This document shows positions 23,210 to 49,868 of a DNA stretch of 64,000 nucleotides, piece by piece. The position numbers and the translations under genes were made by a program. Source of the DNA: Candidatus Latescibacterota bacterium. Its GTDB lineage: Bacteria > Latescibacterota > UBA2968 > UBA8231. The stretch is from contig JAJEGS010000021.1 in NCBI GenBank assembly GCA_022819745.1, positions 62,001 through 126,000 of the forward strand, given 5' to 3'. Each line of letters starts with the position of its first letter. The first letter of the stretch is position 1. The notes beneath the pieces were generated by a model that had not been told where the DNA came from, did no database searches, and saw nothing but the letters and a program-made list of their open reading frames with translations.

Positions 23210-24166
23210 TCAGCGCAACTGATTGTTCAGATGGCTTTTGATCCGGCCCCAGGAGGAGCTCTCCACTGCGGTTGCTCCTGAGCCCCCGGCATTGGGGCAG
23301 TTTTCGCATTCCAGTAGAATCCAGTCGGGAAACCCATCTCCCTGTGTGTCATAGGTGAGCGGGTTTTCAGCTCCGGTAAATCTATCCTTCAGCCACATAT
23401 CGTGCTGATACAAGCTGCCGTCGCTATCGACGAGCCTCGGCCCAATGTGGGTAACCTGACCAGCCTCATACACATGCCTTACGCTCTCCCCCTCGCTCAG
23501 GCCAACGGCGTCGTAGGTTTTGAGCCGGGCTTCCCAGGTGACCTCTACATCCAGAGTGCCGTGCTGGGCATCCGGCGGGGTAATCGTCCAGGCAAGTTCC
23601 CATATATCCGTGGTGTTGCCAAAAAGGTCTACATCCTGATTCCAGCTCAAGTTCTCGTCGCCGAGCACCTCAATCTGGCTGTTGAAGGCCGCTACTCCAT
23701 CCGGACCCGGCAATATGCGCATATGATAGCGCTGGTGGTTGCTCGCCTCGTCGAGGTTGGCCCCCAAGCCGGGGCCGCCCGAGTGGTCGTTGTCGAGGTT
23801 GAACTGGGTGAAATCATCGTGCCACATGCGTTTCAAGTCGGGCTCCTGCCGCCGCAGGGAGTCGTCTTGAATCCGGAAAAAGAAGTAGAGCCGGTTGTCT
23901 GGCGAACGAGAATAGGCCAGCCGGAGAGTGGCAGCGTAATCGGATGGATCAAGGACGTTGTCATTTCTCTCGTGAAAATCCAAAGCGCTGTCCAAGGCGA
24001 GATCGTTGTCGAACCAGCCCCAGTCGCTGTCATCTCCGTCTATGGTCATGGCGTCAGGATCGGGCACTTCTTGCAGGAAAAACTCCAAGCCCGTGTGTGC
24101 CAAAGCCGGCCCGCTAAAGGCCAAAGCCAACGCGCATGCCAAAGGCAAAATTGCGAATCTTGTCAT
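23210..24166 (-). CDS. Secreted CBM9-like/DOMON-type protein, copy 1
   Basis: The 318-residue protein has a signal peptide ending ...FSGPALA followed by HTGLEFFLQEVPDPDAM. The body has the pattern of a carbohydrate-binding module 9 or DOMON-like beta-sandwich: IDGDDSDWGW, RLAYSRSPDNRLYFFFRIQDD, and WELAWTITPPDAQ. The C-terminus holds a CENC pair and ends AVESSSWGRIKSHLNNQLR, a short conserved-looking tail that could be an anchoring or sorting tag. It probably binds a glycan or haem-like ligand outside the cell; no catalytic residues are apparent. It is a tandem paralogue of 24472-25428 with identical length and long stretches of DNA identity. Confidence 0.7.
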   Translation of the reverse strand: MTRFAILPLACALALAFSGPALAHTGLEFFLQEVPDPDAMTIDGDDSDWGWFDNDLALDSALDFHERNDNVLDPSDYAATLRLAYSRSPDNRLYFFFRIQDDSLRRQEPDLKRMWHDDFTQFNLDNDHSGGPGLGANLDEASNHQRYHMRILPGPDGVAAFNSQIEVLGDENLSWNQDVDLFGNTTDIWELAWTITPPDAQHGTLDVEVTWEARLKTYDAVGLSEGESVRHVYEAGQVTHIGPRLVDSDGSLYQHDMWLKDRFTGAENPLTYDTQGDGFPDWILLECENCPNAGGSGATAVESSSWGRIKSHLNNQLR

Positions 24167-25443: not shown

Positions 25444-25475
25444 TAATAGAGGGTCGTAAGGTGAGATTATCTCAG
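25444..25475. repeat. Left target duplication (25444-25451) and left IS inverted repeat (25452-25475)
   Basis: TAATAGAG is the 8 bp target duplication. The 24 bp end begins GGTCGTA and ends TGAGATTATCTCAG, matching the right end with two or three differences in the middle. Confidence 0.88.
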
Positions 25476-27952: not shown

Positions 27953-27977
27953 GAAGATATCAACCGAACAAGAGGCT

Positions 27978-28844: not shown

Positions 28845-30209
28845 CTATGGCCGGTTGCCCATAATGGTAATCTCGCCCCCAAAGCCACCTTCAATTATTC
28901 TGGCGGCAAATGCCTGGACCAAATCGCTTGGCAGGTTGGGGTTGTCTTCAATCCACAGGCGCTTCCCGATGCTTTGCAGATTGTCCAAACCGTCAAGGCT
29001 GGCCAAAGACCTATTGCCATCTATCTGTAGGACGCTTCCGACGCTTTGCAGGTTGTCCAAGCCTTTGAGAGAGACCAGAGATTTATTTTCGTGGATCAGG
29101 AGATTCTCGATCCGAGTGAGCTTGTCTAGGCCCTTTAGGTCCTTCAGGGCATCGCTGCCCCAGATCATCACAGCCCGGCCGACGCTCTGGAGGCTGCGCA
29201 GACCCTCTAGGCTGGTCAGCAGTCTATTGTCGCGAACTATCAATTCATCTCCAACGCGTTGCACGTTGTGCAGCCCTTCCAAGCTGGTCAGAGAGATATT
29301 GCGGTAGAGACTCAGGTTGTCCCCGATGCTTCGCAGGTTGTCCAAGCCCTCCAGAGTGGTCAGAAGGTCGTTGTGCAGGATATGCAGTTCGCCGCCGACG
29401 CTTTGCAAGTTGTGCAACCCTTTTAGGCTGGTCAGCGCAAAATTGTGCTGGATGTGCAGATCGCCCTCAATGCTTTGTAGGCTGCGCAGCCCCTCCAGAG
29501 TAGTTAGACCAAAGTTATAGCCGACAATAGGGAGGCCGAGCTTCAGCGATCCCCCGATGCTTTGCAGGTTGCGCAGGCCCTCTAGGTTGGACAGGGCCTC
29601 ACCGTCGCTGAAGATGCTTCCCTTGGACTCGCGCGCTGCTTGCTCGTCGCCGATGCTGAGAGCATGTCTTCGCGTTCTTTCTTCATAGTCCAGAGGTTCA
29701 TTGCCGAAGATCCCCAAGTCCCCATCGATGCGGGTGAGGTTGCGCAGGCCCTCCAGACTGGTCAGGGACGCATTGTCTCTAATTTCCAGCTTGCCCCCAA
29801 TGCGGGTGAGCCTGTGCAAGCCATCCACATTGGTCAACGCTCGATTGTTGACGATTTCCAGATCCCCTTCGATGCGGGTGAGGTTGTGCAAGTCCTCTAG
29901 GCTGGTCAGGGCTAGATTGGAATGAAGTCGCAAACCACCGACACTATAGAGGTTGCGCAAGTCCTCCAGGCCGGTCAGGGTCGTTCGCTCAATGACCAAC
30001 TTGCCACTGATACTGAAGCAACTGTTGCCATCGCCTGCTAGGGCCTTTAGATCCTCTGGGGTGGCAAGCGAAAAATCCCCTTCCCAATGTACCTCTACTT
30101 CAGAGCAGTCATCGGTCCTAATGGATGATACCGGGCCGGCATCATTATCTCCGCAGCTAACAAGCACGGCAATGGCCACCGCAATCGACAAAACCCGGAC
30201 CATGCACAT
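28845..30209 (-). CDS. Leucine-rich-repeat (receptor-L-domain-like) lipoprotein
   Basis: A 454-residue protein with a lipobox (VLVSCGD, Cys19). Beyond about residue 70 it consists of 23-25-residue repeats of the pattern L-x-I-x-x-N-x-x-LTSLEGLxNLxSIGG, as in receptor-L-domain-like leucine-rich repeats, giving a solenoid of roughly 14 turns. One insertion (around GNEPLDYEERTRR to SDGEALSNLEGL) interrupts the array. It is likely a cell-surface or periplasmic binding lipoprotein. The start at 30209 has AGGAGT just upstream; a second ATG six bases later is equally plausible. It is the last gene of the nine-gene surface operon, 12 bases after the CRTAC1-like gene. Confidence 0.75.
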   Translation of the reverse strand: MCMVRVLSIAVAIAVLVSCGDNDAGPVSSIRTDDCSEVEVHWEGDFSLATPEDLKALAGDGNSCFSISGKLVIERTTLTGLEDLRNLYSVGGLRLHSNLALTSLEDLHNLTRIEGDLEIVNNRALTNVDGLHRLTRIGGKLEIRDNASLTSLEGLRNLTRIDGDLGIFGNEPLDYEERTRRHALSIGDEQAARESKGSIFSDGEALSNLEGLRNLQSIGGSLKLGLPIVGYNFGLTTLEGLRSLQSIEGDLHIQHNFALTSLKGLHNLQSVGGELHILHNDLLTTLEGLDNLRSIGDNLSLYRNISLTSLEGLHNVQRVGDELIVRDNRLLTSLEGLRSLQSVGRAVMIWGSDALKDLKGLDKLTRIENLLIHENKSLVSLKGLDNLQSVGSVLQIDGNRSLASLDGLDNLQSIGKRLWIEDNPNLPSDLVQAFAARIIEGGFGGEITIMGNRP

Positions 30210-30221
30210 GTACTCCTGCTT

Positions 30222-31904
30222 TTAATGCTTGGGTTTCACGGATGTATCCGGTTCGTACAGAGTGAGTACTTGGTTCGCCTCCACGTCCGCGAGCTGTTCG
30301 ACGATACCGCTAGGCCAGCGCACCTCCACTAGCTCTGCTTTTTGTAATGCACCAAGACCAAAATAGAGACGCAGGTCATCCTGGCACAGAAAACTCGACC
30401 CACTCCTGACTTCGTCGATCTGCAAGCGACCACCTGCCACGACCTTGACCAAGGCCCCAATGCCGTCCCGGTTGCTGGAGGAGCTCCGGAGTTGGTCCTG
30501 TGAATGACCAGAGGAGGCAGGGGCATAATTCCCGACAAGTTTGATAGCCAGCCAGTGATTTTGGTTCCCCCCGTCGTTGCGCAGGAGTGCGGCTGGCTGA
30601 TTGTTATTGGAGACCACTAGATCTACATCTCCATCCTCATCGTAGTCTCCGACCGCCGCCCCGCGGCTCACCTGCACCAGTGCCAAGCCCGATCCCGCCG
30701 AATTAGTCACATCGGCAAATCTACCCCGACCGTCGTTCCTGAAAAGTTGGTTCTGCTGGGCATAGTTCACACTAGTGTCGAATAGCTCCACATTGTCATC
30801 TAAGTGACCGTTGGCCACGAAGAGGTCGCAGTCTCCGTCGTTGTCGTAGTCGAAGAAGGCCGTTCCCCAAGCCAGAAATCTCAGGCTCGGCATGCCCAAT
30901 CCCGATTCGAAGGTGGTATCGGCGAAAAAACCGTTGCCCAAGTTCCGGTAGAGATTGTTGGTCTCCCACTGATAGTTGGTCACGAAGAAGTCGAAGAGCC
31001 CATCGTTGTCGTAGTCTCCCGAATCGACCCCCATTCCGGCCAGAGCCTCTCCAGCGTCGTTAAAAGCAACTCCGGCTAGGACACCGATTTCGGCGAAGCG
31101 ATCCCCGTCGTTGCGGTAGAGCAGATTGGGTGTGCGATCTCCGGCCGCGTAAAGATCTAAGTCGCCGTCCTGGTCGTAGTCGCTGAAAAAAGCTCCCAAT
31201 TCCTTGGCCGCCCGGGGCAGCAAGCCGACTGCATCGCTAATGTCTGCGAAGGTTCCGTCTCCCTCGTTGCGGAAGAAGACGTCCGCCTGTGGGTCGAAGG
31301 CCTCGGGTCCGCAATAGACCTGTAGCCCTTTGGCTTGAATGCAGGGCGGGTTTACCTCCGGCGGGTACTCCACGTAATTGGCCACATAGAGGTCGGGATC
31401 GCCGTCTTGGTCGTAGTCGGCAAAAGCCGCTCCTGCACTCCAACCCGGATGGCCCACCCCCGAGTGGCTTGTCACATTGGTAAAGCTCCCATCGCCATTG
31501 TTGCGGTAGAGGATATTGGGCCCGTAGCAAGTGATGTAGAGGTCTAGATCGCCGTCTTGGTCGTAGTCGGCTGCGACACAGCCCATCCCGTGGCCCGATT
31601 CGGCCACCCCGGCAGTGGCCGTGGTCTCCTCAAAGCGCCCGTCGCCTCGATTGCGGTAGAGGGCTCCCGCCCCGGCGATGTTGACAAAGTATAGGTCGAG
31701 CCAGCCATCGGCGTCGTGATCAAAGAAAGCCACCCCCGAACCCTGCGTCTCCGGGAGATGCTTTTCCCCTGTCGCCCCATTCTGGTGGCGAAAGGCAATC
31801 CCAGCCGCAGCAGTAACATCGACGAACTGGACCTCGGCCTTTGCCGGCAGTTGGAGAAAAACCGCTGCGGCGAGACAGTACCCTACATACTTCATTATCA
31901 CCAT
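30222..31904 (-). CDS. CRTAC1-like FG-GAP repeat protein with ASPIC/UnbV C-terminal domain
   Basis: The 560-residue exported protein has a signal peptide and then an FVDVTAAAGIAFRHQNGA start. It carries six or seven FG-GAP/VCBS calcium-loop repeats of the form DYDQDGDLDLY or DYDNDGLFDFF, which form a beta-propeller. The C-terminal ASPIC/UnbV domain includes GIGALVKVVAGGRLQ, VRSGSSFLCQDDLRLYFGLG and VRWPSGIVEQL. Such proteins are secreted and often act in adhesion or in complexes of unknown role. The start may be the second Met (31895). A homologue with a lipobox is at 49869-51827. Confidence 0.88.
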   Translation of the reverse strand: MVIMKYVGYCLAAAVFLQLPAKAEVQFVDVTAAAGIAFRHQNGATGEKHLPETQGSGVAFFDHDADGWLDLYFVNIAGAGALYRNRGDGRFEETTATAGVAESGHGMGCVAADYDQDGDLDLYITCYGPNILYRNNGDGSFTNVTSHSGVGHPGWSAGAAFADYDQDGDPDLYVANYVEYPPEVNPPCIQAKGLQVYCGPEAFDPQADVFFRNEGDGTFADISDAVGLLPRAAKELGAFFSDYDQDGDLDLYAAGDRTPNLLYRNDGDRFAEIGVLAGVAFNDAGEALAGMGVDSGDYDNDGLFDFFVTNYQWETNNLYRNLGNGFFADTTFESGLGMPSLRFLAWGTAFFDYDNDGDCDLFVANGHLDDNVELFDTSVNYAQQNQLFRNDGRGRFADVTNSAGSGLALVQVSRGAAVGDYDEDGDVDLVVSNNNQPAALLRNDGGNQNHWLAIKLVGNYAPASSGHSQDQLRSSSSNRDGIGALVKVVAGGRLQIDEVRSGSSFLCQDDLRLYFGLGALQKAELVEVRWPSGIVEQLADVEANQVLTLYEPDTSVKPKH

Positions 31905-31941
31905 AGAAAAACCCGTGAGCTTATTTCCAGCACCTCTGATA

Positions 31942-33300
31942 TCATTCGGTCAGACGCCGGTATATCTCCAGTTCCGCCTCGCCCTCTGCCTTCCGGTCTT
32001 GCCCGAGGTAGATCATGCCTAGGCTGTAGTGCGCGTCGGCGTGATTGGGCTCTATTTTGATGGTTTTCTGGAAAGCCTGGGTCGCCCGCTGCACATCGCC
32101 CATGGCCATATAAGCGTTCCCGAGGTTGTAATAGGCTTGGACATAGCGGGAGTTGAGCTCTAGGATCTTCTCGTATTGGCCGATCGCTGCGGCTATTTTC
32201 CCTTGCCGGAAAAAGATATTGGCTAGGTTGTTGCGGGCGCTCAGGTCCGCGGGATTGATGAGCAGAGTTTGTTGGTACTCGGCCGCCGCCGCCCGGAAAT
32301 GGCCTAGGCCGGCGTAGAGCACCCCGAGATTGTAATGGGCATCTGCATCCTCTGGATAGAGCGTCAGGATATATCGGTAGCGGTTGATATCATCGCTCGC
32401 TTTCCGCAGACGCTGGAAAGCAGCTAGTAACTTTTGGCCCTCCTCAGTCCTTGCCTGTCTGAGGTAAAGCGTCCCGAGCCGGTGATAGGCTTCTTTTTCA
32501 AAGGGATCGGCGGCAAGCGCTTTCCGCAGAGCGGTCTCTGCTTCGGCCGTCCGCCCTTGTTGCTGCTGCACCTGTCCCAGCAAGGTATAAGCACGGGCGT
32601 ATCCCGGATCGTGGCGGAGAACGGTTCTAAAGCTAGCTTCGGCCTCTTCAAGGTACCCTAACTTGGTATAGATCTGTCCGAGGTGATAGTGCGCATCGAC
32701 GTAAGAGGAATCGAGGGCCACTGTCTGCTCGTACGCCGCAATCGCAGAATCGGCGTGGGCCAATTGCTCGTAGACCGCTCCCAGATTGTAGTGGGTGGCG
32801 GCATTCTCCGGTTCGAGCTGAACTGCCTTGCTCAAGGCTGCAACCGCATCGTCATAGCGGCCCTGAGCACTGAGGACTATGGCGAGCTTGCGATAGGGAG
32901 AAATGCGGTCGGGAGCCAGCGAAATCGCCTCCTCGTAGGCCGAGGCAGAAAGGTGATTCTGGCGCTTGCGCATGTACAGATCGCCCAGCGCAATACGGGC
33001 TTCGACATTGTCCGGATAGAGTTGCACAGCTTGGGCGACGTGCCGAATAGCCAGCTCAAAATCGCCCTGCTTCTGGAGGATGGAACCGGCAAGCAGGAGT
33101 GCCGCGAGGTGGTTCTGATCTACTTCCAAGGCTTGCTGGCAAGCTGCGATAGCTTTGATATAGCTGCCGGTCTCAGCCAGACGCTTGGCCTCGGCGTATG
33201 CCGCCTCGGCCTGCTCCTGTGACCGCTGGTCGCCACAGCCGCTGGTGATGAGGACCGTAAAAAGAGCGCAGTACCAGGCTTTAGATATCGGCTTCTGCAT
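31942..33300 (-). CDS. TPR-repeat lipoprotein
   Basis: The 452-residue protein has a lipobox (VLITSGCGD, Cys22) and then about twelve tetratricopeptide repeats from residue 30 to the end. Diagnostic units are AATHYNLGAVYEQL, VDAHYHLGQIYTKLGYLEEA, AYYNLGNAYMAMGDVQRA and ADAHYSLGMIYLGQ. TPR arrays bind protein partners, so it is probably a scaffold of an envelope complex. Its start overlaps the end of the peptidyl-prolyl isomerase gene by 20 bases, implying coupled expression. Confidence 0.85.
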   Translation of the reverse strand: MQKPISKAWYCALFTVLITSGCGDQRSQEQAEAAYAEAKRLAETGSYIKAIAACQQALEVDQNHLAALLLAGSILQKQGDFELAIRHVAQAVQLYPDNVEARIALGDLYMRKRQNHLSASAYEEAISLAPDRISPYRKLAIVLSAQGRYDDAVAALSKAVQLEPENAATHYNLGAVYEQLAHADSAIAAYEQTVALDSSYVDAHYHLGQIYTKLGYLEEAEASFRTVLRHDPGYARAYTLLGQVQQQQGRTAEAETALRKALAADPFEKEAYHRLGTLYLRQARTEEGQKLLAAFQRLRKASDDINRYRYILTLYPEDADAHYNLGVLYAGLGHFRAAAAEYQQTLLINPADLSARNNLANIFFRQGKIAAAIGQYEKILELNSRYVQAYYNLGNAYMAMGDVQRATQAFQKTIKIEPNHADAHYSLGMIYLGQDRKAEGEAELEIYRRLTE

Positions 33301-34939
33301 CCATTTTCTTCAAGCGGTCCTCAAATAGGACGATCTTTGAGGCGTACTTCTCCTTCAGACTGTGAAGTAGGGCGGTGAGTAGCTCCTCTTCCTTTTCTTT
33401 CGCCAGCCAATATCGCGCTCTCGACGACGCCTTCTCAAAAGGATCGGGCTTCAAGCCGGCCTTCTCCATCACCTTAAATACTGTGTAGCCTTCCTCGAGT
33501 TGGACGGGGCCTTTTAGCTCACCCACCTCCGCCTTCATCGCCTCGTCGTAGAGGCCGCCGTAATTGGCTTGTCCATAGGCGTGCATATGAATTAAACCTT
33601 TGGTTCTCTCGACCCCACTTCTGATACTGTAGCGCTCGGCCAAACGCTCCATATCTTCCCCGTTCAGTATCCGTTCCAAGACCTCCTTGGCCTCTTCCTG
33701 GGTTGTACACAGAATCTCTTGGACAGTGATCTGTTCGGGCTTTTTAAAAAGATGTAGATGGCTTTCGTAGTAGGAGCGCACCGCTTCGTCGCTCAGGTTG
33801 ATCTGCTGATCCACCTCCCGCTCTTTTAAAATTTCGAGCAGCATAGTCTTTTTCTTGGCCTCCAGCCAAGCGACTACCGACGAGTCCTGATCAATTCCCT
33901 GCTGCAGGGCTGCTTTGGACAGGAGGGTGATCGGCAAAAGCTCCCGATGGATGAACTCGGTGATGCCGCTGCTATCAAATCTGACCGAGCGGAAGCGGCG
34001 GACTCTCTGGTAGGTATCGACGAAATCTTTCAAGGTCAACTGTCCGCCATCGAAACGACACAGAACCACCTCCTGGTCCGGCTCTGCTAGATCCAGCGTA
34101 TCCGCGTCAGAGCTCGGAGCCCTTGCCAGCAGGAAAACAATGCCCTCCTGGTCCAGCTCCACCTCGAACTGGGTAGCCAACTCCTCCATCAGCTCTTCGC
34201 GGCGGGCCCAAGCGGCTTTGGTAATCTGGACTTGGGCATGGATCAAGCTGTAACTAGCAGGGGGAGGGCTCTCGGCCACGATCTGGAAGACCTCGTATCC
34301 GCCCCCAATCTCAAAGGGGCGGCTGATCTTTCCTACCGCTAGCTCAAAAACTTCCTCTGCAACCTCCACCGGCATCCCCTGCTCTTCTACGTTTCCACGC
34401 CCGTAGAGGGGACCGAGCAGGCCACCTTGGGAGGCGGTCTCTCGATCGGTAGAACGAAGTTTGGCCACTTCCCCAAACCCTTTTCCCTGCTCGAGCTCTT
34501 CCACTACCTTGCGGGCGTCCTCCTCGGTCTCCACCTGGATGCGGGCTAGTTTCAGCATCCGGTTCCACTTGGACTGCTCGAAGCGACGTCGCAACTCCTC
34601 TGACGAAAAAGCGCTCTTCTCTTTGACTTCCCGGCGGAGGATCTCCCGGATCAGTTTTTGCTGCCGCTCGTGCTCCCATTTAGCCAGAAACTCCGAATCC
34701 TGGTCTATGCCCTGCTTCCGAGCCTCGAGTAACATCAACTCCATATCGACCATGCTGTCGAGGTGTTCGCGCCACATCTGGACGCCCTGCTCCTCAGAGC
34801 GGAGCAGAGCGGGTATATCCGTATTGAACCGAAGCAAGTCTTCGACCGTAATCTCCACTGTATCGACCCGGGCTACCACATTGTCGTCCGCTGGGTTACC
34901 GCAACCGAACAGCCACAAAAAAAACGCGACTAGTACCAA
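33281..34939 (-). CDS. Parvulin-type peptidyl-prolyl isomerase lipoprotein (PrsA/SurA-like)
   Basis: A 552-residue protein with a very short leader and lipobox (LWLFGCGN, Cys13). A SurA/PrsA-type N-terminal helical domain is followed by two parvulin (rotamase) domains. The first includes LARIQVETEEDARKVVEEL and GGLLGPLYGRG; the second includes ITVQEILCTTQEEAKEVLE and GPVQLEEGYTVFKVME. It would fold exported proteins at the membrane, fitting its place among surface-protein genes. A TTG start at 34939 is used because AGGAGAG lies eight bases upstream. It overlaps the TPR gene by 20 bases. Confidence 0.85.
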   Translation of the reverse strand: MVLVAFFLWLFGCGNPADDNVVARVDTVEITVEDLLRFNTDIPALLRSEEQGVQMWREHLDSMVDMELMLLEARKQGIDQDSEFLAKWEHERQQKLIREILRREVKEKSAFSSEELRRRFEQSKWNRMLKLARIQVETEEDARKVVEELEQGKGFGEVAKLRSTDRETASQGGLLGPLYGRGNVEEQGMPVEVAEEVFELAVGKISRPFEIGGGYEVFQIVAESPPPASYSLIHAQVQITKAAWARREELMEELATQFEVELDQEGIVFLLARAPSSDADTLDLAEPDQEVVLCRFDGGQLTLKDFVDTYQRVRRFRSVRFDSSGITEFIHRELLPITLLSKAALQQGIDQDSSVVAWLEAKKKTMLLEILKEREVDQQINLSDEAVRSYYESHLHLFKKPEQITVQEILCTTQEEAKEVLERILNGEDMERLAERYSIRSGVERTKGLIHMHAYGQANYGGLYDEAMKAEVGELKGPVQLEEGYTVFKVMEKAGLKPDPFEKASSRARYWLAKEKEEELLTALLHSLKEKYASKIVLFEDRLKKMDAEADI

Positions 34940-34951
34940 CGCTCTTCTCTC

Positions 34952-35719
34952 CTACTGCTCAGTGGCGGGCGGCTCGAGGGCATAGCTGACCTCCCGGGTG
35001 AACTGATAGGGAATATCGACTGTCTCTATTGGCTCGTCCCGGTAGTCGAAACGCAAGGTCATTTCCTCGATCCGAACCTCGAAATCCTCGACATCGTCGT
35101 CCAGCGCAGGAAAGACGACAAACCCGCTTTTTTCCTGACCACTGAAGATCATATCATCGTTGAAGAGCGTCTTCCTCAGAATGCCCTCTCGCTCCTTGAA
35201 TGGCTGGTAGGTATTGCCTGCGTAGGCGATTGCATAGGGCCAGTAGTATTCGATCAGGGCGGTGCGGCTAAGCGACTGGTAGCGCCGTCCGTTGGGGGCT
35301 GTGATCTCAATCGAGGCCGGGTCCACGCGCACCTTTGGATAGGCGTAGTTTTTTATTTTTAGCAGAAAGACCGCAAAACGGGCCGGAGCCTGTTCCTCAC
35401 CCGACGGCTTCCAGTCGCCGTAGGTATACGGATTGACTGGAGCTTGGTACGGGTTGTCGCGGTAAAAGCCCGCAGGAGAAGCCGAATGAACTTCAAACTG
35501 CCGGTTTAGCATTTCGGCAGTTATAGGTTGCAGGCTGACCTCCAAGCGACCCTTGACAAAGGTGATGCTGCGGTCATCGCCGACGTTAAATTCCTCGGTC
35601 TGCTGAATCTCGGCAACGGGCACTATGGGCCCGGGAAAGTGCCGATAGCCCAATTTGTAGCCGCAACCACCCAACAGCAGGGCTACTGACGCGATTGCGC
35701 TGAGTACAAATGTCCTCAT
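34952..35719 (-). CDS. Lipoprotein of unknown function
   Basis: The 255-residue protein has a clear lipoprotein signal (MRTFVLSAIASVALLLGGCGY, lipid-modified Cys19). The mature part looks like a beta-rich domain: IEITAPNGRRYQSLS, KSGFVVFPALDDDVEDFEV and RIEEMTLRFDYRDEPI recall bacterial domains with an Ig-like TXXD/DUF4352-type fold, but I do not recognise the family. The start at 35719 is supported by AGAGGTGAT five bases upstream; the longer open frame overlaps the preceding gene. It is 12 bases from the parvulin gene, so the two are likely made together. Confidence 0.7.
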   Translation of the reverse strand: MRTFVLSAIASVALLLGGCGYKLGYRHFPGPIVPVAEIQQTEEFNVGDDRSITFVKGRLEVSLQPITAEMLNRQFEVHSASPAGFYRDNPYQAPVNPYTYGDWKPSGEEQAPARFAVFLLKIKNYAYPKVRVDPASIEITAPNGRRYQSLSRTALIEYYWPYAIAYAGNTYQPFKEREGILRKTLFNDDMIFSGQEKSGFVVFPALDDDVEDFEVRIEEMTLRFDYRDEPIETVDIPYQFTREVSYALEPPATEQ

Positions 35720-35760
35720 CCTAATCACCTCTTGGCGATATATTGCGACGCTTCTGAGCT

Positions 35761-37836
35761 TCAATAAGCCACACTCACCACCTGCAATTGATCGAAATCC
35801 CCTTGATCCGCCCCCACCCGCACCCGCGCCACATACACTCCAGGCGGCACCAATGCGCCGGCTTCGTCCCGGCCATCCCATTCCACCTCCTCCTGCGGGC
35901 CAGCTCTCTGTACCTCCAGCATCTGTTGCCATACCCGCTGTCCCCCTAAGGTGTACAGGCCCACCTCTACCTCTGTCCCCCCCAGCACCTGGAACAAAGT
36001 GAAGCGGATCGACACTACATCATTAATGCCGTCCCCCTGAGGTGTAAACACCGACGGCTGCACCTCTAACTGGCGCAGAACAGATCCCAGCGACGACTCG
36101 ACCGCGACTATGCGCAACTGGTTAGTGCCCATCTCGTCGCTGACATCTCCGCTCTCCACTTCCTGCGGCAACCCGGCTTGTTCCCGATGAAACACCTCAG
36201 CTCGCAGAGCCGCCGAGGCGCTGTACAATGCCGTCTCCAGCCGCAGGCGCAACCGCCAGTCGCCGTCTGGACTAAGCGGACGTGGCAGGTACACGATGAA
36301 CCCCTGCTCCTCAGGTACCACATCGGCTGGATCCACAGTCACTGGCTGTGGCGGATCACCCATCTCCAGACTCAAAAACTCGGCACCCGAGGGTGCCAAT
36401 ATCCGCACCCCATCAAAACCGGTCTGGCCGGCGACGAAATCGGCACCTATTTCGTAGACTAACTCGGTCGGCTCGCCGACGGGCAGCAGGGCCACTCTGC
36501 CTTCGGGCTGCAAATCGTCCACCACGGCCACCTCGCCCAGCACCCGCTCGGCCAATAGTGGCGAGGTCTCCACCACCAGCGAGTCGATGCGGGCAAACGA
36601 TTCTAGGCTCTCACTGTCCATTTCCACTCGCAGCATGATAAAGCGGCCGCGCGGCACCCGGGGCTTTTCGCCGGACTGCTCGAGCGGGGGCGACCAGAAG
36701 CTCCAGTTGTCCCGGTCTTCAGTGATCGGTCCGGCCCAGCCGGCCGCCAGCGGGTCAAAGGGCCAGCGCCGCGGTTTGAGGCGGGAGTAATCGGTGGCGC
36801 TTACCTCGGTAGGCTGGCGCAAGTCGTTGTAGGTGTGGTAGGCTACCGGTTCGTCGTCCAAGCCAGTACGCACGGACACCCTGACCTGAGTGGGCGCTTC
36901 GGGATCGGGTTGGGGTTCGGACGCGACCGCGTCCTTGCGCCAAGTGCTGACGCCGAAGTGGACCTGGCCGATATTGACGATCTGTCCCAAGTCTATGACC
37001 TTGGACTCCCAGCGGACCTCGGGCACGACGCCGCGGCCGTACACCTCCAACTCGGACACCGCATACCGCGCGAACGCGGTATTTTGACCCTCTCTACAAC
37101 ATTGCGAGTCCGGAATAAAGCGCAGGCGAAAGAAGCGCAGGTTCTGGCGCGGAAAGGTTACATCGATCGTGGATTCGAGATTGCCCTCCACCGAGGCCAG
37201 CACAGTGTCCAGCGGAATGTAGAACCCGCGGCACCAGAAGTGATTGGTACACCAAGTGCCGTCTTGCAGCTTTATCGCCACCTCATCGTTGCTAGCGGTC
37301 AATTCGTAGCGGGGGAAGAAGTAGTTGGGGTCGTAGGGTTCTTGGGTGATCGGCTCAGTACCCTCCGGTGGAAGCATTACAAAGCGCTCGGCGGGGATCC
37401 GCGTGCCCAGATCGATGGAGTAAAACTCGCCTTCTACCCCCCCTTGGCCACCGGCTGCGGTAAAGCCTGAGGAGGCATAATAGGTGCTGCGGTCCCCGTC
37501 TACGAATATCAGCGCATCGGCAACTCGGCCGACCTCGCGGATGGAACCAACAGCCCGCCAGACATGGGGCATGCCGGGACGATAGTCGAACTCGACCGGC
37601 TCGCGGAAGCGGAACCAAGGGCCGATCTGGGTGACCACGTTCACGTTGGGATCGAGGAAAAGGGGCTGGATCGCTCCTGTGCTAGAGGTCAAATCTACCA
37701 TCACGTTCAAGGCGGTCTGGTCGGCCCAGGGCTGGCCGTCTTCCCCGCCAAGGCGCAACTCAATTAGCTGGGTGGCCGACTCGCGAGGGCTAACCAGCAG
37801 CCCTAGGGCAATCAGCGCAAAAAAGACACCTCTCAT
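35761..37836 (-). CDS. Exported protein with discoidin-like domains and C-terminal FlgD-type Ig domain
   Basis: A 691-residue protein with a signal peptide (MRGVFFALIALGLLVS). The N-terminal half shows discoidin/F5-8-type sandwich features (FYSIDLGTRIPAERFVMLPP; ENLRFFRLRFIP-like strands). The C-terminal 100 residues are a FlgD-Ig/gliding-motility-type domain: FTPQGDGINDVVSIRF, YTLGGQRVWQQ, VEWDGRDEAGALVPPGVYVARV, ending VVSVAY. In other bacteria such terminal domains mark surface export or attachment. It resembles 40566-42875 and 42892-44838, and all three probably are co-transcribed. AAGGAAG precedes the ATG. Confidence 0.75.
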   Translation of the reverse strand: MRGVFFALIALGLLVSPRESATQLIELRLGGEDGQPWADQTALNVMVDLTSSTGAIQPLFLDPNVNVVTQIGPWFRFREPVEFDYRPGMPHVWRAVGSIREVGRVADALIFVDGDRSTYYASSGFTAAGGQGGVEGEFYSIDLGTRIPAERFVMLPPEGTEPITQEPYDPNYFFPRYELTASNDEVAIKLQDGTWCTNHFWCRGFYIPLDTVLASVEGNLESTIDVTFPRQNLRFFRLRFIPDSQCCREGQNTAFARYAVSELEVYGRGVVPEVRWESKVIDLGQIVNIGQVHFGVSTWRKDAVASEPQPDPEAPTQVRVSVRTGLDDEPVAYHTYNDLRQPTEVSATDYSRLKPRRWPFDPLAAGWAGPITEDRDNWSFWSPPLEQSGEKPRVPRGRFIMLRVEMDSESLESFARIDSLVVETSPLLAERVLGEVAVVDDLQPEGRVALLPVGEPTELVYEIGADFVAGQTGFDGVRILAPSGAEFLSLEMGDPPQPVTVDPADVVPEEQGFIVYLPRPLSPDGDWRLRLRLETALYSASAALRAEVFHREQAGLPQEVESGDVSDEMGTNQLRIVAVESSLGSVLRQLEVQPSVFTPQGDGINDVVSIRFTLFQVLGGTEVEVGLYTLGGQRVWQQMLEVQRAGPQEEVEWDGRDEAGALVPPGVYVARVRVGADQGDFDQLQVVSVAY

Positions 37837-37887
37837 AACACATCTTCCTTAAAAGATTGCGCTCAATCCATCCTCATTGTGTACATA

Positions 37888-40533
37888 TCAATCCGTACCT
37901 GTGCTGGCAAATACGCGCACGAAACCGATGGATTCATCTCTGGTATCCTCTTCTTTGAACTTGGCACGCCGCAGTTGCAGACCTGTATTCGCGGTTATCT
38001 GGTAGCCCAAGTAAGCAGAAGTGTTGGAAATGAGGATCGAATAAACCTGGCTGCGGAAGTCGTCGACAAAGCCCGGCGGTGGCTCTTCCGGTCGCTGCTC
38101 CAAGTTTTCAAACCAGCTAAATTCGACCCCGCCTTCCACCCATGTTCCCGGCAGCAGCGAGTAGCGGGTAATCAGAAATAGGGTTTGCTCGAGGTCGCGG
38201 GATTTCAGGCTCGATTTTGCCGAAGGGGTCTCGCGCCGAAATGTGCTCTTCCACCTAGGCCAGAATATCAAGTCCTCCCCCACTGGAATGGCGTACCCCG
38301 CCTTGTTGATCATGCCGAAGAACGAGCGATTGCGCAGCTCGTCGGCCTGTTCTCCCCGCTGGTTGAAGATTTCGTACTTGATCTTGCTCTGAATATCCAG
38401 ATCGCGAATCCGGTTGTACCTGGTCTGGAGGTACAAGGTGTTGACAAAGGTGTCCTGATTCTCCAAGGGATCGCTGAAGTTCTCCGTTCCCGTAGGATCT
38501 ATCCAGATCAGTCGGTCGTCCGCGATATTGTCCTTTACCAGCTTGGCGTGTTCGACCAGACCGATGTTCCACCCGGGCATATTCACTTCTGCCGTAAACA
38601 GTCCGTAGGTAGCGCGGCTCTTCCTAGCGCTGCTGGGCATCCGTTCCTGCAGCCGGCCGATGGTAATTTGCGCTCTCTTGGCGAGCATCAGCCCTCCGTA
38701 GATATTGTATCCCCGGCGGTCCCGTTCGTAGGGAAAGTCCGGCTGCCGATCGTCCTCGAAGCGGTCGATGAGCGTGTTGTTGTTCATGTCCATTCCGAAG
38801 AGGAACTCTGGAGGATCCACTGCGTAGCGCAGGAAGGGCTCGGCATAGTCGGGTCTAGCGTTGGCATTCTGGTTGAAATCGGAGACAAAGTCGTTGTTCT
38901 CGTCGAGTCCGGGAAAGACGTTGTTGTCGGCTCCCGCCCCTCCCACATCCCCGACCAGTCCGATTTGATTGATGCGTTGCCAGTCTGGAAAGCGGTCCTG
39001 ATCGTCGTTGTCGTCGACGAACTCAAACAGGTGCCGCTGCTCGTCGCTGTAGTCGATGCCCCCCAGTGAATTGGAGATGAAGGCCGTGGTGCTGTAGTCG
39101 GGAGCCATGTCAAAGGCTTCTGTGTAGACGAAATAGGGATAGTCATTGTAGGAGGCGGTAACATAGGCCGCGTCGGCCCGGTCCTTCTCTGCGGCGAGGT
39201 CGTTGACCCCAAAGTTCTGGTTGGGGAAGCGCCGGAAGCGTCGATTTACTGCGTACTCGGCGCGCAGGTCTAGGCCTCCTAAGTTGTTTATCTCCAAATC
39301 CAGACCAATTACCTCGTGGGCTGTGGGCAGGCCGTACTCAAATCTAATGAAGCGCTGATTGGACCCGTCGACGACCTCCTTCTCAGCTTGGGCAACGGGC
39401 AAAAAGACCTGACCTCCGAGGCGATCTGTCTGTTTGTTGGATGAGACCTCCACCCGATAGTCGTTAGCTATGATCAACTCGAACTCCAGCTTGGAGATAT
39501 CCCCCAAGGTCGGGACCTCTTCCGTCGGTCGGAAATCGTTCCTGATATCGTAGATCAGCTCGATCACATCTGTGCCGCGCGCCTCGAGGTTGCCCTCACT
39601 GCGAATCCCGCCTCGTATCAAGGGGGTGATTTCCGGATGTGGCTTCCCGTTGACGACCACTTGGTCGAAGAAGAGGAGTGCCCCCGATTGCGGGGTTTCT
39701 GGGGAATCGTCCGAGATTCGGACGACCACGGTTTCCACGCTGCCCTGGTTCTGGGGCTCGGTCAGCACGCCTTTTAAGGAATTATCCCCTAGGGTCAGGG
39801 TACTGCTCGTGTTGGCGACGTTGACCCAGGTCAGCCCCAGTTGCGCAAAGTCCCCTACTTGTCCAACCCCTCGGCCGGCCAAAAGCCTCGAGGTGTTCTC
39901 GGATCGGCTGGGTCCGGATGTCTGCGTGAGGGCCGAAAAGCCGGGCGCACTGAGTCGAGACGCCAAGATGGTCATAGCGTACTTGTCAGTGAGAAAGTCC
40001 CACTGGATACCATTAAAAGTCGGCTTGGAAAAGGTGAGGGGCGTCAAGGTCGTGCGAAGCGCATCGCCTATGGTCAGGGAAGTGTGGAACTGGCCTTTCT
40101 GGGCAGACGACACGATGACATTGTTGAACCAACTCTGGTAAAACGCGTTCTTGAATATCTCGCTTCCGAGCCGCTCCGGACTGTTCTCGGTCCAGTCGTA
40201 GATCTTCCATCCCCGGGCGATATAATTGCCAAAGAGGTCGTATTGCCGGGTTCCTTCGAGCAGAATGTTCACGTAGCGCTGATAGTTTTGCCGGGCATAG
40301 TTACTGTACTCCCACCCCCGCCAACTGTATTCATAGTAGAGATTCTGGGGCAGATACCACTTCCGGCGGTTGGGAGCCAAGGCACCAGGGCGGACCCGTG
40401 CTCCGTAGATCCCTGGCTCTTCGACGGGGCGGTATCCGGTAAATAACTGAGCGTTTGCCGGGATTTCTCCCAATATGATACAGCTCAAGAGAAGCAACAT
40501 TACTGGTCTTAAAAGGCCTATTGCCTGCGGCAT
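37888..40533 (-). CDS. Large outer-membrane barrel-like protein with calcium-loop insert
   Basis: An 881-residue protein with a signal peptide (ending IPANAQ). The sequence is rich in aromatic residues and alternating beta strands. It includes YLPQNLYYEYSWRGWEYSNY near the start and repeated amphipathic strands towards the C-terminus, as in outer-membrane barrels, but I do not recognise the family. Around 520-610 are acidic loops (DDNDDQDRFPDW, GLDENNDFVSDFNQNAN, GMDMNNNTLIDRFEDD) that look like thrombospondin-type-3 calcium sites. It sits between two FlgD-Ig surface-protein genes and may be their transporter, anchor or partner. AGGTGAT precedes the ATG. Confidence 0.65.
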   Translation of the reverse strand: MPQAIGLLRPVMLLLLSCIILGEIPANAQLFTGYRPVEEPGIYGARVRPGALAPNRRKWYLPQNLYYEYSWRGWEYSNYARQNYQRYVNILLEGTRQYDLFGNYIARGWKIYDWTENSPERLGSEIFKNAFYQSWFNNVIVSSAQKGQFHTSLTIGDALRTTLTPLTFSKPTFNGIQWDFLTDKYAMTILASRLSAPGFSALTQTSGPSRSENTSRLLAGRGVGQVGDFAQLGLTWVNVANTSSTLTLGDNSLKGVLTEPQNQGSVETVVVRISDDSPETPQSGALLFFDQVVVNGKPHPEITPLIRGGIRSEGNLEARGTDVIELIYDIRNDFRPTEEVPTLGDISKLEFELIIANDYRVEVSSNKQTDRLGGQVFLPVAQAEKEVVDGSNQRFIRFEYGLPTAHEVIGLDLEINNLGGLDLRAEYAVNRRFRRFPNQNFGVNDLAAEKDRADAAYVTASYNDYPYFVYTEAFDMAPDYSTTAFISNSLGGIDYSDEQRHLFEFVDDNDDQDRFPDWQRINQIGLVGDVGGAGADNNVFPGLDENNDFVSDFNQNANARPDYAEPFLRYAVDPPEFLFGMDMNNNTLIDRFEDDRQPDFPYERDRRGYNIYGGLMLAKRAQITIGRLQERMPSSARKSRATYGLFTAEVNMPGWNIGLVEHAKLVKDNIADDRLIWIDPTGTENFSDPLENQDTFVNTLYLQTRYNRIRDLDIQSKIKYEIFNQRGEQADELRNRSFFGMINKAGYAIPVGEDLIFWPRWKSTFRRETPSAKSSLKSRDLEQTLFLITRYSLLPGTWVEGGVEFSWFENLEQRPEEPPPGFVDDFRSQVYSILISNTSAYLGYQITANTGLQLRRAKFKEEDTRDESIGFVRVFASTGTD

Positions 40534-40565
40534 ACATCACCTCCCATTATCCTGCTGAGAACTTC

Positions 40566-42875: not shown

Positions 42876-42891
42876 CGGAACAGTCCTTTCC

Positions 42892-44838
42892 TCAGTACAC
42901 TATTCCCACAGTCTCCGCCTGCACAAAGCTTTCTTGGTCGGCGTTAACCGAAACCTTGACCAGATAAATGCCGACTGGAAGCAGTTTCTCGTTCTCATCC
43001 CGTCCATCCCATGGCCTTATGTGATTTCCGCTCCGCTCCTCCCCAGCCAAGGTCCGCACTCTCCGACCCGCGAGATCGAAGATGGCCACCTCCACCTCCA
43101 CTGGTACTACCAGTTGTGAAAGGGTGAGCGCGATCAAAGCCTCTTCGTTGATCTCATCCCCATTGGGCGAGAACACCTTCGGAGTGACCTCGAAAGAGGA
43201 CAGGACCTCCCTAGCAGACTCGGCTGCAGTCAGCACCCGCAGCGTATTGGTCGTCACGTCGGGGTTGGCATCGCCCGACAAAACTCTCTGAGGGACCTCT
43301 TCGCTTTGGGTATCGAAGACCTCGGCGTTCAAGAAGCTCCCCTGGACAAACACTTGGGCCTCAAAAATGATCTGCAGGCCGTCTCGGCCGGTTATCCGAT
43401 GGGAAGAGGGGAAGAGCACGGTCAGGCTGCCGAGTTCCTCTATAATCCCGGCGGGTTCTACCTTTTCAGGAGGATTCCCTATGGAGAGTTCGCCAAATTT
43501 TGGCTGCGACGAGGGGGTGAATATCCGGATGGCATCAAAGCCGATGTCCGTTCCCGCAACATCGGCGATGAGATCGTAGGCAAAGGTGACGAACTGGCCG
43601 ACCGGCACGACGGCCACACTGCGCGGAGGACGGGGGTCGTCCAGCACAGAGACCTCTCCGATTAATTGTTGGGCCAGCGGCGGAATAGAGTGCTCTACGC
43701 TCAGAGAAGTGACCTGTATGCCGTCTAAAATGGACCGACTCTTCATGGCTATCTCGAACTGAAAGTAGCGACGCGGACTGGGCAGGGCGATCCTCTGCCC
43801 GGAGGAGGTAAAGGGCGATGACCAGAGGCTCCAGTTGGCCTGGTCGTCCTGAAACCCGCCCTGTTCATTTTGACTTAACTTGTTGTATGCGTCCTCTGTC
43901 ACTACCTCTCGTTCCCGGGTAAAGCGATCTACCAGCCGAAAAAAAACCCGGGGATTGTCGTCCGTCCCCGTGCGCATCCGGATGGCGATTTCTGTGTCGG
44001 AGTCTTCCACTACGACCTGATTGGTGCCCTCCTGACGCAGTCCCTCGACCGTCCATTCGAGCCGACTGAAATTGGCCGCCTCCCCCAAGTCAATGATCTT
44101 GGAGGTATAACTGGCTTGGGGAGCGAAGCCGGTACCAAAAAGCTGAAATTCGGCGATTTCGAATGGATTCGGAGAATTTACATGCAGGCGGATAAAGCGA
44201 ATAAACTGCAACGGGAACAGAACCTCTGCCGTGTCCTCACGAGTGAATTCCACCTGCCGCAGGAGGCTGTAATCCGGTCTATTGTCTTGGGTAAAGTTTA
44301 GCCCGTCGCTGGAGAAGAGACTATAGCCCCGAATGAAGTCCTCACTATAAGGTCGTCCTTGATCATCAACGCCAAACGGACGTGGAAAAAAGAGGATTCT
44401 ATTTATCGGAATCCGGGTCCCCAGGTCGAACTCAAATCTTCTCCCACTCTGTTGCACTCCGAATTCCTTGAAGCGATCTCCGGTGGAGGTAGTATCTTGC
44501 CCATCTACGATCACCAGTTGCGACTCTCTCAAGGTGGTATTGTCCCAGACGTGGGCCTGAGCGCGCTCTTCGAGAAACCCTATCGGGCGGGCGCTGACCC
44601 AGCTCAACTGCTGGGTGATATTGTTCTGGAGATCAAATCCCAAACTCTTGATAGTTCCCGTCTGGGAAAAGTCGAGAGCCGTCGAGGCCAACTCCTGCGA
44701 AGCCCAGGATTCGCCGCCTTCCCCCACCGTCCACTGCCGCACCTCTCCCCAGCTAATCCCCGACATGGCCGCAATCCAGATCGCCGTGATCGCCATCGCA
44801 GCCGATCTTTTCGCTTGGGGCTTCATTGTTTTCCGCAT
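42892..44838 (-). CDS. Exported protein with discoidin-like domain and C-terminal FlgD-type Ig domain
   Basis: The 648-residue protein is first in the surface operon. A signal peptide follows a basic start (MRKTMKPQAKRSAAMAITA). The middle contains FDLGTRIPINRILFFPRPF and a LQFIRFIRLHVNSPNPFEIAEFQL segment typical of discoidin-like sandwiches. The C-terminal FlgD-Ig domain has FSPNGDEINEEALIALT, AIFDLAGRRVRTLAGEE, RPWDGRDENEKLLPVGIYLV and ends VGIVY. The ATG at 44838 is chosen because GGGGG precedes it and the signal peptide then has normal length; an upstream ATG at 44886 would add 16 residues. Confidence 0.72.
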   Translation of the reverse strand: MRKTMKPQAKRSAAMAITAIWIAAMSGISWGEVRQWTVGEGGESWASQELASTALDFSQTGTIKSLGFDLQNNITQQLSWVSARPIGFLEERAQAHVWDNTTLRESQLVIVDGQDTTSTGDRFKEFGVQQSGRRFEFDLGTRIPINRILFFPRPFGVDDQGRPYSEDFIRGYSLFSSDGLNFTQDNRPDYSLLRQVEFTREDTAEVLFPLQFIRFIRLHVNSPNPFEIAEFQLFGTGFAPQASYTSKIIDLGEAANFSRLEWTVEGLRQEGTNQVVVEDSDTEIAIRMRTGTDDNPRVFFRLVDRFTREREVVTEDAYNKLSQNEQGGFQDDQANWSLWSSPFTSSGQRIALPSPRRYFQFEIAMKSRSILDGIQVTSLSVEHSIPPLAQQLIGEVSVLDDPRPPRSVAVVPVGQFVTFAYDLIADVAGTDIGFDAIRIFTPSSQPKFGELSIGNPPEKVEPAGIIEELGSLTVLFPSSHRITGRDGLQIIFEAQVFVQGSFLNAEVFDTQSEEVPQRVLSGDANPDVTTNTLRVLTAAESAREVLSSFEVTPKVFSPNGDEINEEALIALTLSQLVVPVEVEVAIFDLAGRRVRTLAGEERSGNHIRPWDGRDENEKLLPVGIYLVKVSVNADQESFVQAETVGIVY

Positions 44839-49746: not shown

Positions 49747-49868
49747 TGACACTCCGGCCAGTGCGAGTCCGGTGGTCTATTTGACTTCAAAATGGTGCCG
49801 CGTTCTTTTGTACTCGGGTCGGTCATGCATCTCAAATGGGATTAAAAATTAGATAGGAGACACGGATT

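What the first reader, a model, noticed from the sequence alone, without database searches (positions are those of the whole stretch)
28845..44838. Nine-gene operon of exported proteins: possible undescribed surface-assembly system
Seen: nine genes run in one direction with gaps of at most 51 bases or overlaps of 20. All encode exported proteins: three discoidin/FlgD-Ig proteins, one 881-residue barrel-like protein, lipoproteins with lipoboxes (unknown, parvulin isomerase, TPR, leucine-rich), and one CRTAC1-like propeller. Known: parvulins fold secreted proteins, TPR lipoproteins scaffold envelope complexes, and C-terminal FlgD-like or type IX-like domains mark surface export. Inference: the set could be a secretion, assembly and display unit for large surface proteins, with the barrel as an outer-membrane component. 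I do not know such a combination as a named system.
Basis: partly seen in the sequence, partly recalled or inferred. Interest (0 to 1): 0.75.

Follow-up and report, generated by a model that had tools for sequence, protein, structure and literature searches.

The report
Repeated surface-display gene modules of Latescibacteria
The nine genes are one copy of a gene module that recurs more than forty times in each of two complete related genomes and probably places secreted proteins on the cell surface with the help of a large, unnamed outer-membrane barrel, which could be a new branch of the type IX secretion pathway.

Summary
The nine-gene run is real and is one copy of a repeated Latescibacterota module. 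Its core, gene 3 (B), has no Pfam match and is predicted as an outer-membrane barrel of about 24 long strands (pLDDT 82, pTM 0.80). Two complete chromosomes carry about 41 and 47 copies. Directly upstream of B lies an exported protein (F) with a FlgD/CHU_C tail in 57 of 88 copies; 19 more follow another B; elsewhere 60 of 72. F tails resemble Bacteroidota type B sorting domains. SprA and PorV are in both chromosomes, PorU in the one tested; PorP/SprF and GldM were not detected. Of 64 genomes, all 35 with close B have strong F tails; the other 29 have weak ones or none.

Best reading: B does the job of PorP/SprF, holding F after SprA-dependent export; this is inferred. Against it: co-variation lies in F's body, not its tail, and in two genomes a PorP/SprF-like barrel sits beside B. 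The complete nine-gene order was seen in one close relative.

The parts
42892..44838 (-). Gene 1: F protein (648 aa), exported, FlgD_ig/CHU_C type-B-like tail ending IVY
   Evidence: matches in most of L001-L021
40566..42875 (-). Gene 2: F protein (769 aa), F5/8 type C domain plus CHU_C tail; the F immediately upstream of the barrel
   Evidence: position-linked F lineages
37888..40533 (-). Gene 3: B, 881-aa predicted outer-membrane beta-barrel (about 24 long strands, an inserted domain near 268-399, acidic conserved stretch 500-605)
35761..37836 (-). Gene 4: F protein (691 aa) with type-B-like tail ending VAY
34952..35719 (-). Gene 5: L, ~255-aa lipoprotein of unknown family (lipobox LLGGC, by eye)
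   Evidence: 18 of 59 barrel windows against 1 of 40 controls
33281..34939 (-). Gene 6: P, parvulin lipoprotein with two rotamase domains
   Evidence: 44 of 59 barrel windows against 0 of 40 controls
31942..33300 (-). Gene 7: T, TPR lipoprotein
   Evidence: 37 of 59 against 5 of 40
30222..31904 (-). Gene 8: A, FG-GAP/ASPIC beta-propeller protein
   Evidence: 20 of 59 against 2 of 40
28845..30209 (-). Gene 9: Receptor-L-domain lipoprotein (LRR-like); kept in L002
24472..25428 (-). c2 protein, copy 1: exported, CBM9-like only below cut-off, C-terminal TAVESSSWGRIK tail; two copies also follow the operon in G001
   Evidence: c2 in 41 of 59 barrel windows against 0 of 40 controls
23210..24166 (-). 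c2 protein, copy 2 (83% identical to copy 1)

Best explanation
The operon is one of many parallel surface-display modules. The F proteins (genes 1, 2, 4) are made with signal peptides, are recognised by their type-B-like C-terminal domain and cross the outer membrane through the SprA translocon of a type IX secretion system encoded elsewhere. Each F is then taken over at the surface by the barrel B encoded next to it (gene 3), which holds it there. B thus plays the part that PorP/SprF barrels play for type B cargo in Bacteroidota, but it shows no sequence relation to them and is much larger. The parvulin helps fold B and/or F. The TPR lipoprotein and the propeller protein form the periplasmic side of the anchor, as the TPR and propeller domains of PorE may do. 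The displayed F and c2 proteins bind ligands, probably glycans. Shown by computation: genes, families, barrel prediction, copy number, recurrent linkage, tail class, and presence of SprA and PorV in two relatives and PorU in one. Inferred: that the window's own genome has a T9SS (it is not held), export of F by SprA, physical capture by B, roles of P, T and A, and ligand type.
For: B is predicted as a large barrel (pLDDT 82.0, pTM 0.80); the 50 listed rows of Foldseek and of VIA are outer-membrane barrel proteins as far as their descriptions tell. B has about 41 and 47 copies in two complete chromosomes. F is the same-strand gene directly upstream in 57 of 88 copies, 19 more follow another B, and F lies within five genes of 87 of 88; 60 of 72 in loci from other genomes, 2 of the 72 at a locus end. 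F tails contain [ST]P[NQ]GD in 144 of 153 in the two chromosomes and 154 of 181 in other loci. On a tail profile 160 of 164 barrel-window hits score 50 bits or more; of 13 control hits two do (93 and 96 bits) and 11 do not, 8 of them type-A-like NPFN/SPFN tails. Of 150 listed CHU_C hits (270 in all), 108 lie within 10 kb of a B, 18 expected. Over 64 genomes, the 35 with close B all have a tail match at E 8.2e-28 or better, the other 29 none better than 2.4e-19, while SprA_N is in 60 of 64. In G001: SprA 613 bits (cut-off 200), PorU 629 (420), PorV 67 (27). PorP_SprF: 0 of 2 complete chromosomes. B and the adjacent F co-vary (r 0.55 and 0.59, permutation p below 0.0005). Precedent: type B cargo genes are commonly followed by a cognate PorP/SprF gene, and two tested substrates need it for secretion (PMC12618676, passages); PorE-PorP-PG1035 complex (PMC9143113, abstract and passages).
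Against: In the distance comparison the body of F, not its last 90 residues, follows B: the tail's partial correlation is -0.13 and -0.14 once the body is accounted for; with the last 250 residues it is 0.21 and 0.02. A pure tail-recognition model predicts the opposite. A PorP/SprF-family barrel over Pfam's cut-off lies beside B in two genomes, G013 and G017 (25.6 to 27 bits, cut-off 22.3), so B is not a plain substitute there; two more relatives of that barrel beside B (L057, L159) do not match PorP_SprF. Of the window's genes only gene 2 passes the CHU_C cut-off; TIGR04131 matches are below cut-off. GldM was not detected, so the motor is unproven. The PorP_SprF search of the two chromosomes rang in none of its 14 control genomes. 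Two genomes with close B (G004, G046) show no SprA_N match. In one search the dividing E-value was chosen after the fact, 16 of the other 29 genomes have weaker tail matches, the profile was built from genomes with B, and shared ancestry could give the same split. Pairing is not one to one: some modules have three F per B, others two or three B in tandem. No binding or secretion was shown.
Confidence: 0.52

Rival explanations
1. SusC/SusD-like uptake: B is an import channel for large ligands, F and c2 are surface binding proteins that feed it, and the many copies reflect many substrates.
For: Large amplified barrel with a co-inherited partner; discoidin domain in gene 2 and CBM9-like c2, the latter below cut-off; sugar ABC permeases in 7 of 59 and solute-binding proteins in 8 of 59 barrel windows against 0 and 1 of 40 controls; a DUF6785 transporter in 18 of 59 against 3 of 40.
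Against: B matches no TonB-dependent receptor or SusC model. F rarely look like lipoproteins by a crude test (7 of 336). Common catabolic enzymes are less frequent near B: GFO_IDH 6 of 59 against 14 of 40 windows, PhyH 6 against 14, MR_MLE 5 against 7; six further enzyme families are rare in both sets (1-4 of 59, 0-2 of 40). The type IX-like tails are unexplained.
Confidence: 0.23
2. B is itself the translocation pore for F (a two-partner or usher-like secretion channel) and no T9SS is involved.
For: Foldseek ranks FimD/PapC ushers among its best matches; cargo-then-pore gene order is usual in two-partner systems (recalled); the body of F, not the tail, co-varies with B.
Against: F carry type IX-like tails, and SprA/PorU/PorV are encoded in relatives; usher matches have TM about 0.2 to the query, like the porins; no POTRA or usher domain by Pfam.
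Confidence: 0.11
3. B with F forms a structural outer layer or tether (SlpA-like) rather than specific display pairs; copy number gives variation.
Confidence: 0.08

Closest known systems
Type B CTD cargo with PorP/SprF shuttle-anchor (SprB-SprF of Flavobacterium johnsoniae, PG1035-PorP-PorE of Porphyromonas gingivalis)
   Same: Exported cargo with a CHU_C-type tail encoded directly upstream of an outer-membrane barrel; several such pairs per genome; TPR and beta-propeller partners; SprA present in relatives.
   Different: B has no PorP_SprF match, is 881 aa with about 24 strands against a 273-position model; about 41-47 copies per genome against 10 PorP-like proteins in F. johnsoniae (PMC9143113, passage); up to three cargo genes per barrel; extra parvulin and c2 genes; phylum Latescibacterota.
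SusC/SusD (RagA/B) pairs of Bacteroidota
   Same: Amplified, co-inherited outer-membrane barrel plus surface binding protein.
   Different: No SusC or TonB-receptor match, partners mostly not lipoproteins by a crude test, no enrichment of common catabolic enzymes.
SprA/Sov translocon
   Same: Large outer-membrane barrel of the type IX pathway.
   Different: Profile comparison of B with the SprA of G001 and G002 gives no relationship (E 0.57).
SlpA/SDBC of Deinococcus
   Same: Large barrel with extra domains; one of the best structural matches.
   Different: Match tied with general porins; no sequence match of B to any PDB chain of this kind.

Membership tests
PorP/SprF family (PF11751) | Profile match of B | tested here: not met
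   Gene 3 has no Pfam family at E 0.01
PorP/SprF family (PF11751) | Gene directly downstream of a type B cargo gene | tested here: met
   57 of 88 directly, 19 more behind another B; 60 of 72 elsewhere
PorP/SprF family (PF11751) | Small barrel (model of 273 positions) | tested here: not met
   881 aa, about 24 long strands
PorP/SprF family (PF11751) | Required for secretion or anchorage of its cognate cargo | not testable with these tools
   needs experiment
Type B CTD cargo (PF13585/TIGR04131) | C-terminal domain match | tested here: inconclusive
   CHU_C over cut-off in gene 2 only; genes 1 and 4 and TIGR04131 below cut-off or absent; in two complete relatives 122 and 148 CHU_C matches at E 0.001 (at most 150 candidates scored each)
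Type B CTD cargo (PF13585/TIGR04131) | Distinct from type A tails of the same genomes | tested here: met
   160 of 164 barrel-window hits at 50 bits or more; 11 of 13 control hits below 50, 8 of them NPFN/SPFN type-A-like. The profile was built from tails chosen by the TPNGD motif, some from these windows
Type IX secretion system (relatives G001/G002) | SprA, PorU, PorV | tested here: met
   SprA_N and PorV in both; SprA TIGR04189 and PorU NF033707 over cut-off in G001; PorU not tested in G002
Type IX secretion system (relatives G001/G002) | GldL/GldM motor | tested here: inconclusive
   PF12081 finds nothing; sensitivity unproven; GldL not tested
SusC/SusD | SusC/TonB-dependent receptor match of the barrel | tested here: not met
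   No match of gene 3 in Pfam (E 0.01) or to TIGR04056 in NCBIfam (E 0.1); TIGR04056 hits in the two chromosomes are below cut-off and not at the B positions
SusC/SusD | Catabolic gene cluster around the pair | tested here: inconclusive
   Common catabolic enzymes not enriched; sugar ABC genes and DUF6785 enriched
SprA | Sequence relation to SprA | tested here: not met
   hhalign of A1 with the SprA pair A2: E 0.57
SlpA/SDBC | Same fold family | tested here: inconclusive

The most novel reading that the evidence does not exclude
Latescibacterota run a second, independently evolved display branch of type IX secretion: an unnamed 24-strand barrel family, amplified to some 41-47 cargo-linked copies per genome, has largely taken over from PorP/SprF as receiver and anchor for type B cargo, with its own foldase and scaffold genes; alongside it the c2 proteins carry a further, undescribed C-terminal sorting tag (TAVExxSWGxIK).
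Probability: 0.32. Interest if true: 0.85.

Novelty: new variant of a known kind. Interest (0 to 1): 0.72.

Why it matters
[quoted passage not shown] both in the listing). Latescibacteria belong to that superphylum (abstract of PMC4454575, listing), so a T9SS there is not itself a shock. New would be dozens of barrel-cargo modules built on a barrel with no sequence relation to PorP/SprF: it would show that the cargo-receiver step can be carried by other barrels, and it would name a large family (682 and 918 significant proteins in two searches that each scored about 8000 candidates and may overlap) that matches no Pfam or NCBIfam model. It also makes specificity testable: dozens of natural cargo-barrel pairs in one genome.

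Tried and rejected
Own genome of the window: not held, so complete relatives were used. SprA homology of B: rejected. PDB sequence matches for B: none by single sequence; by profile only two antibody chains at E 0.4, taken as chance. Viral structure library: mostly generic barrels and unnamed or fibre proteins, nothing informative. DUF6785 transporter as an OPT relative: weak (hhalign probability 13%, E 0.0022), left open. PUL-like reading: sugar ABC genes and DUF6785 enriched, GFO_IDH, PhyH and MR_MLE less frequent than in controls, six other enzyme families rare in both, so not preferred but kept as the main rival. Promoter and terminator scan of the operon: no more sites than in shuffles (7 against 6.9; 14 against 16.4), so no claim about transcription. 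Complementary spread of B and PorP_SprF: 16 of 64 genomes have a PorP_SprF match at E 0.001, 14 of them without B, 2 with close B; the matches are marginal and the two in genomes with close B lie next to B and pass Pfam's cut-off, so a clean replacement pattern is not claimed. Three of the 13 control hits of the tail profile show no clear tail in their last 95 residues and were counted in neither class. No listed structural match singles out one known barrel family; that is not evidence of a new fold. Barrel closure was not checked, as no coordinates are returned.

Literature: no held paper joins Latescibacter* with T9SS or with type IX secretion, and none prints the six tag hexapeptides searched. 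Searches gave listings only, in part capped; no paper on this system was noticed in them. PMC4454575 (passages) reports non-specific porins and TonB import in Latescibacteria and type VI secretion in one genome; the words SusC and discoidin do not occur in its main text. PMC10202324, PMC12618676 and PMC9143113 were seen as passages (the last also as abstract). The library holds only open-licence papers.
Full report
WHAT IS THERE. The window holds nine - strand genes between 28845 and 44838 with gaps of 12-51 bases and one 20-base overlap. Pfam gives FlgD_ig/CHU_C tails for genes 1, 2 and 4 (a discoidin domain only in gene 2), no family for genes 3 and 5, two parvulin domains for gene 6, TPRs for gene 7, FG-GAP/ASPIC for gene 8 and a Receptor L domain for gene 9. 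Below I call the FlgD/CHU_C proteins F, the 881-residue protein B, gene 5 L, gene 6 P, gene 7 T and gene 8 A. Two further genes, 23210-24166 and 24472-25428, encode exported proteins (c2), one with a CBM9 match below cut-off, the other with none. Two c2 genes also follow the same operon in the relative G001, so I count them with the module.

THE BARREL. A first search returned 682 significant proteins (7997 candidates scored, 120 listed). A second, from a distant paralogue, returned 918 (7994 scored, 120 listed). The few listed rows with an organism name are Latescibacteria/-ota, Handelsmanbacteria, Gemmatimonadetes/-ota or 'bacterium'. Record titles of the loci also include Desulfobacterales, Aminicenantes and Gemmatimonas; whether these labels are right was not tested. 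With 59 sequences the model has pLDDT 71.8 and pTM 0.71; with 127 sequences, 82.0 and 0.80. By my count of the DSSP line there are 24 long strands in three runs (104-243: 7; 402-476: 4; 606-877: 13), with a domain at about 268-399 and a conserved acidic stretch at 500-605. No coordinates are returned, so barrel closure was not checked. The 50 listed rows of Foldseek and of VIA are outer-membrane barrel proteins as far as their descriptions tell (a few titles name only a complex); no single family stands out.

COPY NUMBER. A scan of species genomes found 410 stretches encoding a relative; the best 80 were kept. Eight of these lie in two complete chromosomes (OY282352.1 = G001, OX638377.1 = G002). 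They hold 54 and 59 matches, many of them pieces of one gene. Merging, with ten short matches left out, gives 42 and 47 copies. My own ORF caller finds 41 and 47 genes of at least 500 aa; one array of three ORFs in G001 had been merged into four.

THE MODULE. In these 88 barrel genes, the same-strand gene directly upstream is F in 57 and another B in 19, other genes in the remaining 12; F lies within five genes of 87. In 72 barrel genes of the loci, after leaving out the 8 loci from G001/G002, it is F in 60, the locus ends in 2, and it is something else in 10. Gene maps show a recurring set. Among the 80 loci, many cut short, 9 have the exact run F-F-F-B-c2-L-P-T (one of them from G002), 16 have c2-L-F-F-F-B (one from G002) and one (L002) has the window's order. 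L002 has all nine genes (83-94% identity). Against 40 barrel-free 18-kb windows that I picked by hand on the same chromosomes, the 59 barrel windows hold F in 59 (control 11), c2 in 41 (0), P in 44 (0), T in 37 (5), A in 20 (2), L in 18 (1) and the DUF6785 transporter in 18 (3). The family models were built from sequences found near barrels, which favours barrel windows, and the two chromosomes are related, so windows are not independent.

THE TAIL. F tails hold [ST]P[NQ]GD in 144 of 153 in the two chromosomes, 154 of 181 in other loci and 3 of 3 in the window; the commonest ends are VAY and VVY (81 and 30 of 153). In the control windows 13 proteins match the tail profile: 8 are NPFN/SPFN tails of the type A sort, 2 are TPNGD tails without a nearby barrel, and 3 are unclear. 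A profile built from 60 of 110 diverse tails, chosen by that motif and in part from these same windows, gives 50 bits or more for 160 of 164 barrel-window hits and for 2 of the 13 control hits (93 and 96 bits). CHU_C (PF13585) and TIGR04131 are the type B families according to PMC10202324 (passages). Of the 150 listed CHU_C hits in the two chromosomes (270 in all, at most 150 candidates scored per genome), 108 lie within 10 kb of a barrel against 18 expected.

THE EXPORT MACHINE. G001 encodes SprA (613 bits, cut-off 200), PorU (629, 420) and PorV (67, 27). SprA_N and PorV are also in G002; PorU was not tested there. PorP_SprF and GldM are not found in either, without a good positive control. 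Over 64 genomes of the phylum, SprA_N is in 60 (missing in G004, G008, G016 and G046, of which G004 and G046 have close B) and B in 39. The 35 with close B all have an F-type tail at E 8.2e-28 or better. The other 29 (25 without B, 4 with a diverged B) have none better than 2.4e-19, and 16 of them have weaker matches at 1e-12 or better. The split is clean, but the dividing line was chosen after seeing it and shared ancestry could also produce it. PorP_SprF matches occur in 16 of the 64: 14 without B, 2 with close B. In those two, G013 and G017, the gene lies beside B and passes Pfam's cut-off; related genes beside B in L057 and in G002 (L159) do not match.

CO-VARIATION. Distances of B and of the adjacent F correlate (r 0.55, 24 pairs in G001; 0.59, 33 pairs in G002). 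The signal lies in the body of F rather than in its last 90 residues (partial -0.13 and -0.14). Using the last 250 residues it is 0.21 and 0.02. PMC10202324 (passage) notes that more than 200 residues are needed for secretion of type B fusions. The F next to B belong to particular F lineages: 16 changes on a tree of 155 F against 46.8 in 300 shuffles, minimum 38; part of this comes from orthologous pairs of the two chromosomes sharing their place.

HOW IT MOST LIKELY WORKS. In Bacteroidota, type B cargo depends on a cognate PorP/SprF barrel whose gene commonly lies directly downstream (PMC12618676, passages). In P. gingivalis the cargo PG1035 sits on PorP, which sits on PorE, a lipoprotein with TPR, propeller and peptidoglycan-binding domains (PMC9143113, abstract and passages). 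The module has a like parts list in other guise: cargo F, barrel B, TPR lipoprotein T, propeller A. I therefore read B as a PorP/SprF analogue, not a homologue. The alternatives are uptake (SusC/D-like), direct secretion through B, and a structural layer. Uptake is the strongest rival because sugar ABC genes and the DUF6785 transporter are enriched near B, although GFO_IDH, PhyH and MR_MLE enzymes are not.

NOVELTY. No Pfam or NCBIfam model covers B (the one NCBIfam row, a guanylate kinase at E 0.069, is chance), and no paper in the held library joins Latescibacter* with type IX secretion or T9SS. I rate it a new variant of a known kind.

Noticed in passing
window 23222-23278 and 24484-24540 (tails of the c2 proteins); L193, L196, L204, L207, L003:323-1393, L129, L149: c2 proteins end in a conserved tail TAVExxSWGxIKxx (94 of 102 carry the pattern). 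A 19-position profile finds 55 places in G001 at E 10 or better, 30 of them fetched as loci; of 29 read, 25 are c2 and 4 are not. Such a tail also ends a PD40 propeller, an aldo/keto reductase and a 413/429-aa protein without Pfam match. It may be an undescribed C-terminal sorting tag.
   Followed up: partly
window 25452-26681: IS1-family element (24-base inverted ends, 88% complementary; DDE_Tnp_IS1) between the operon and the c2 pair; the transposase has no match in the syntenic stretch of G001.
   Followed up: partly
window 26876-28766 and L251:2849-3576: A 2-hydroxyacid dehydrogenase-like and a phytanoyl-CoA dioxygenase-like gene (names from cluster mates and recall) match only in part at the syntenic place in G001.
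   Followed up: partly
window 45295-47133: DUF6785/DUF6784 membrane transporter, divergent from gene 1; the same family sits inside or beside other barrel modules (18 of 59 windows against 3 of 40).
   Followed up: partly
window 47197-51827: TMEM260-like O-mannosyltransferase and a second FG-GAP/ASPIC protein next to the operon; surface glycosylation might be linked.
   Followed up: no
L117, L123, L130, L147: Arrays of two to three diverged barrel genes in a row, in L130 with an F between, in G001/G002.
   Followed up: no
L178:3705-4598, L179:1733-2623, L061:3819-4598, L057, L159: A small barrel with a PorP_SprF match over cut-off lies beside B in G017 and G013; relatives beside B in L057 (cut short) and L159 (G002) have no PorP_SprF match. 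In G013 and G017 a transporter follows, OPT family in G017.
   Followed up: partly
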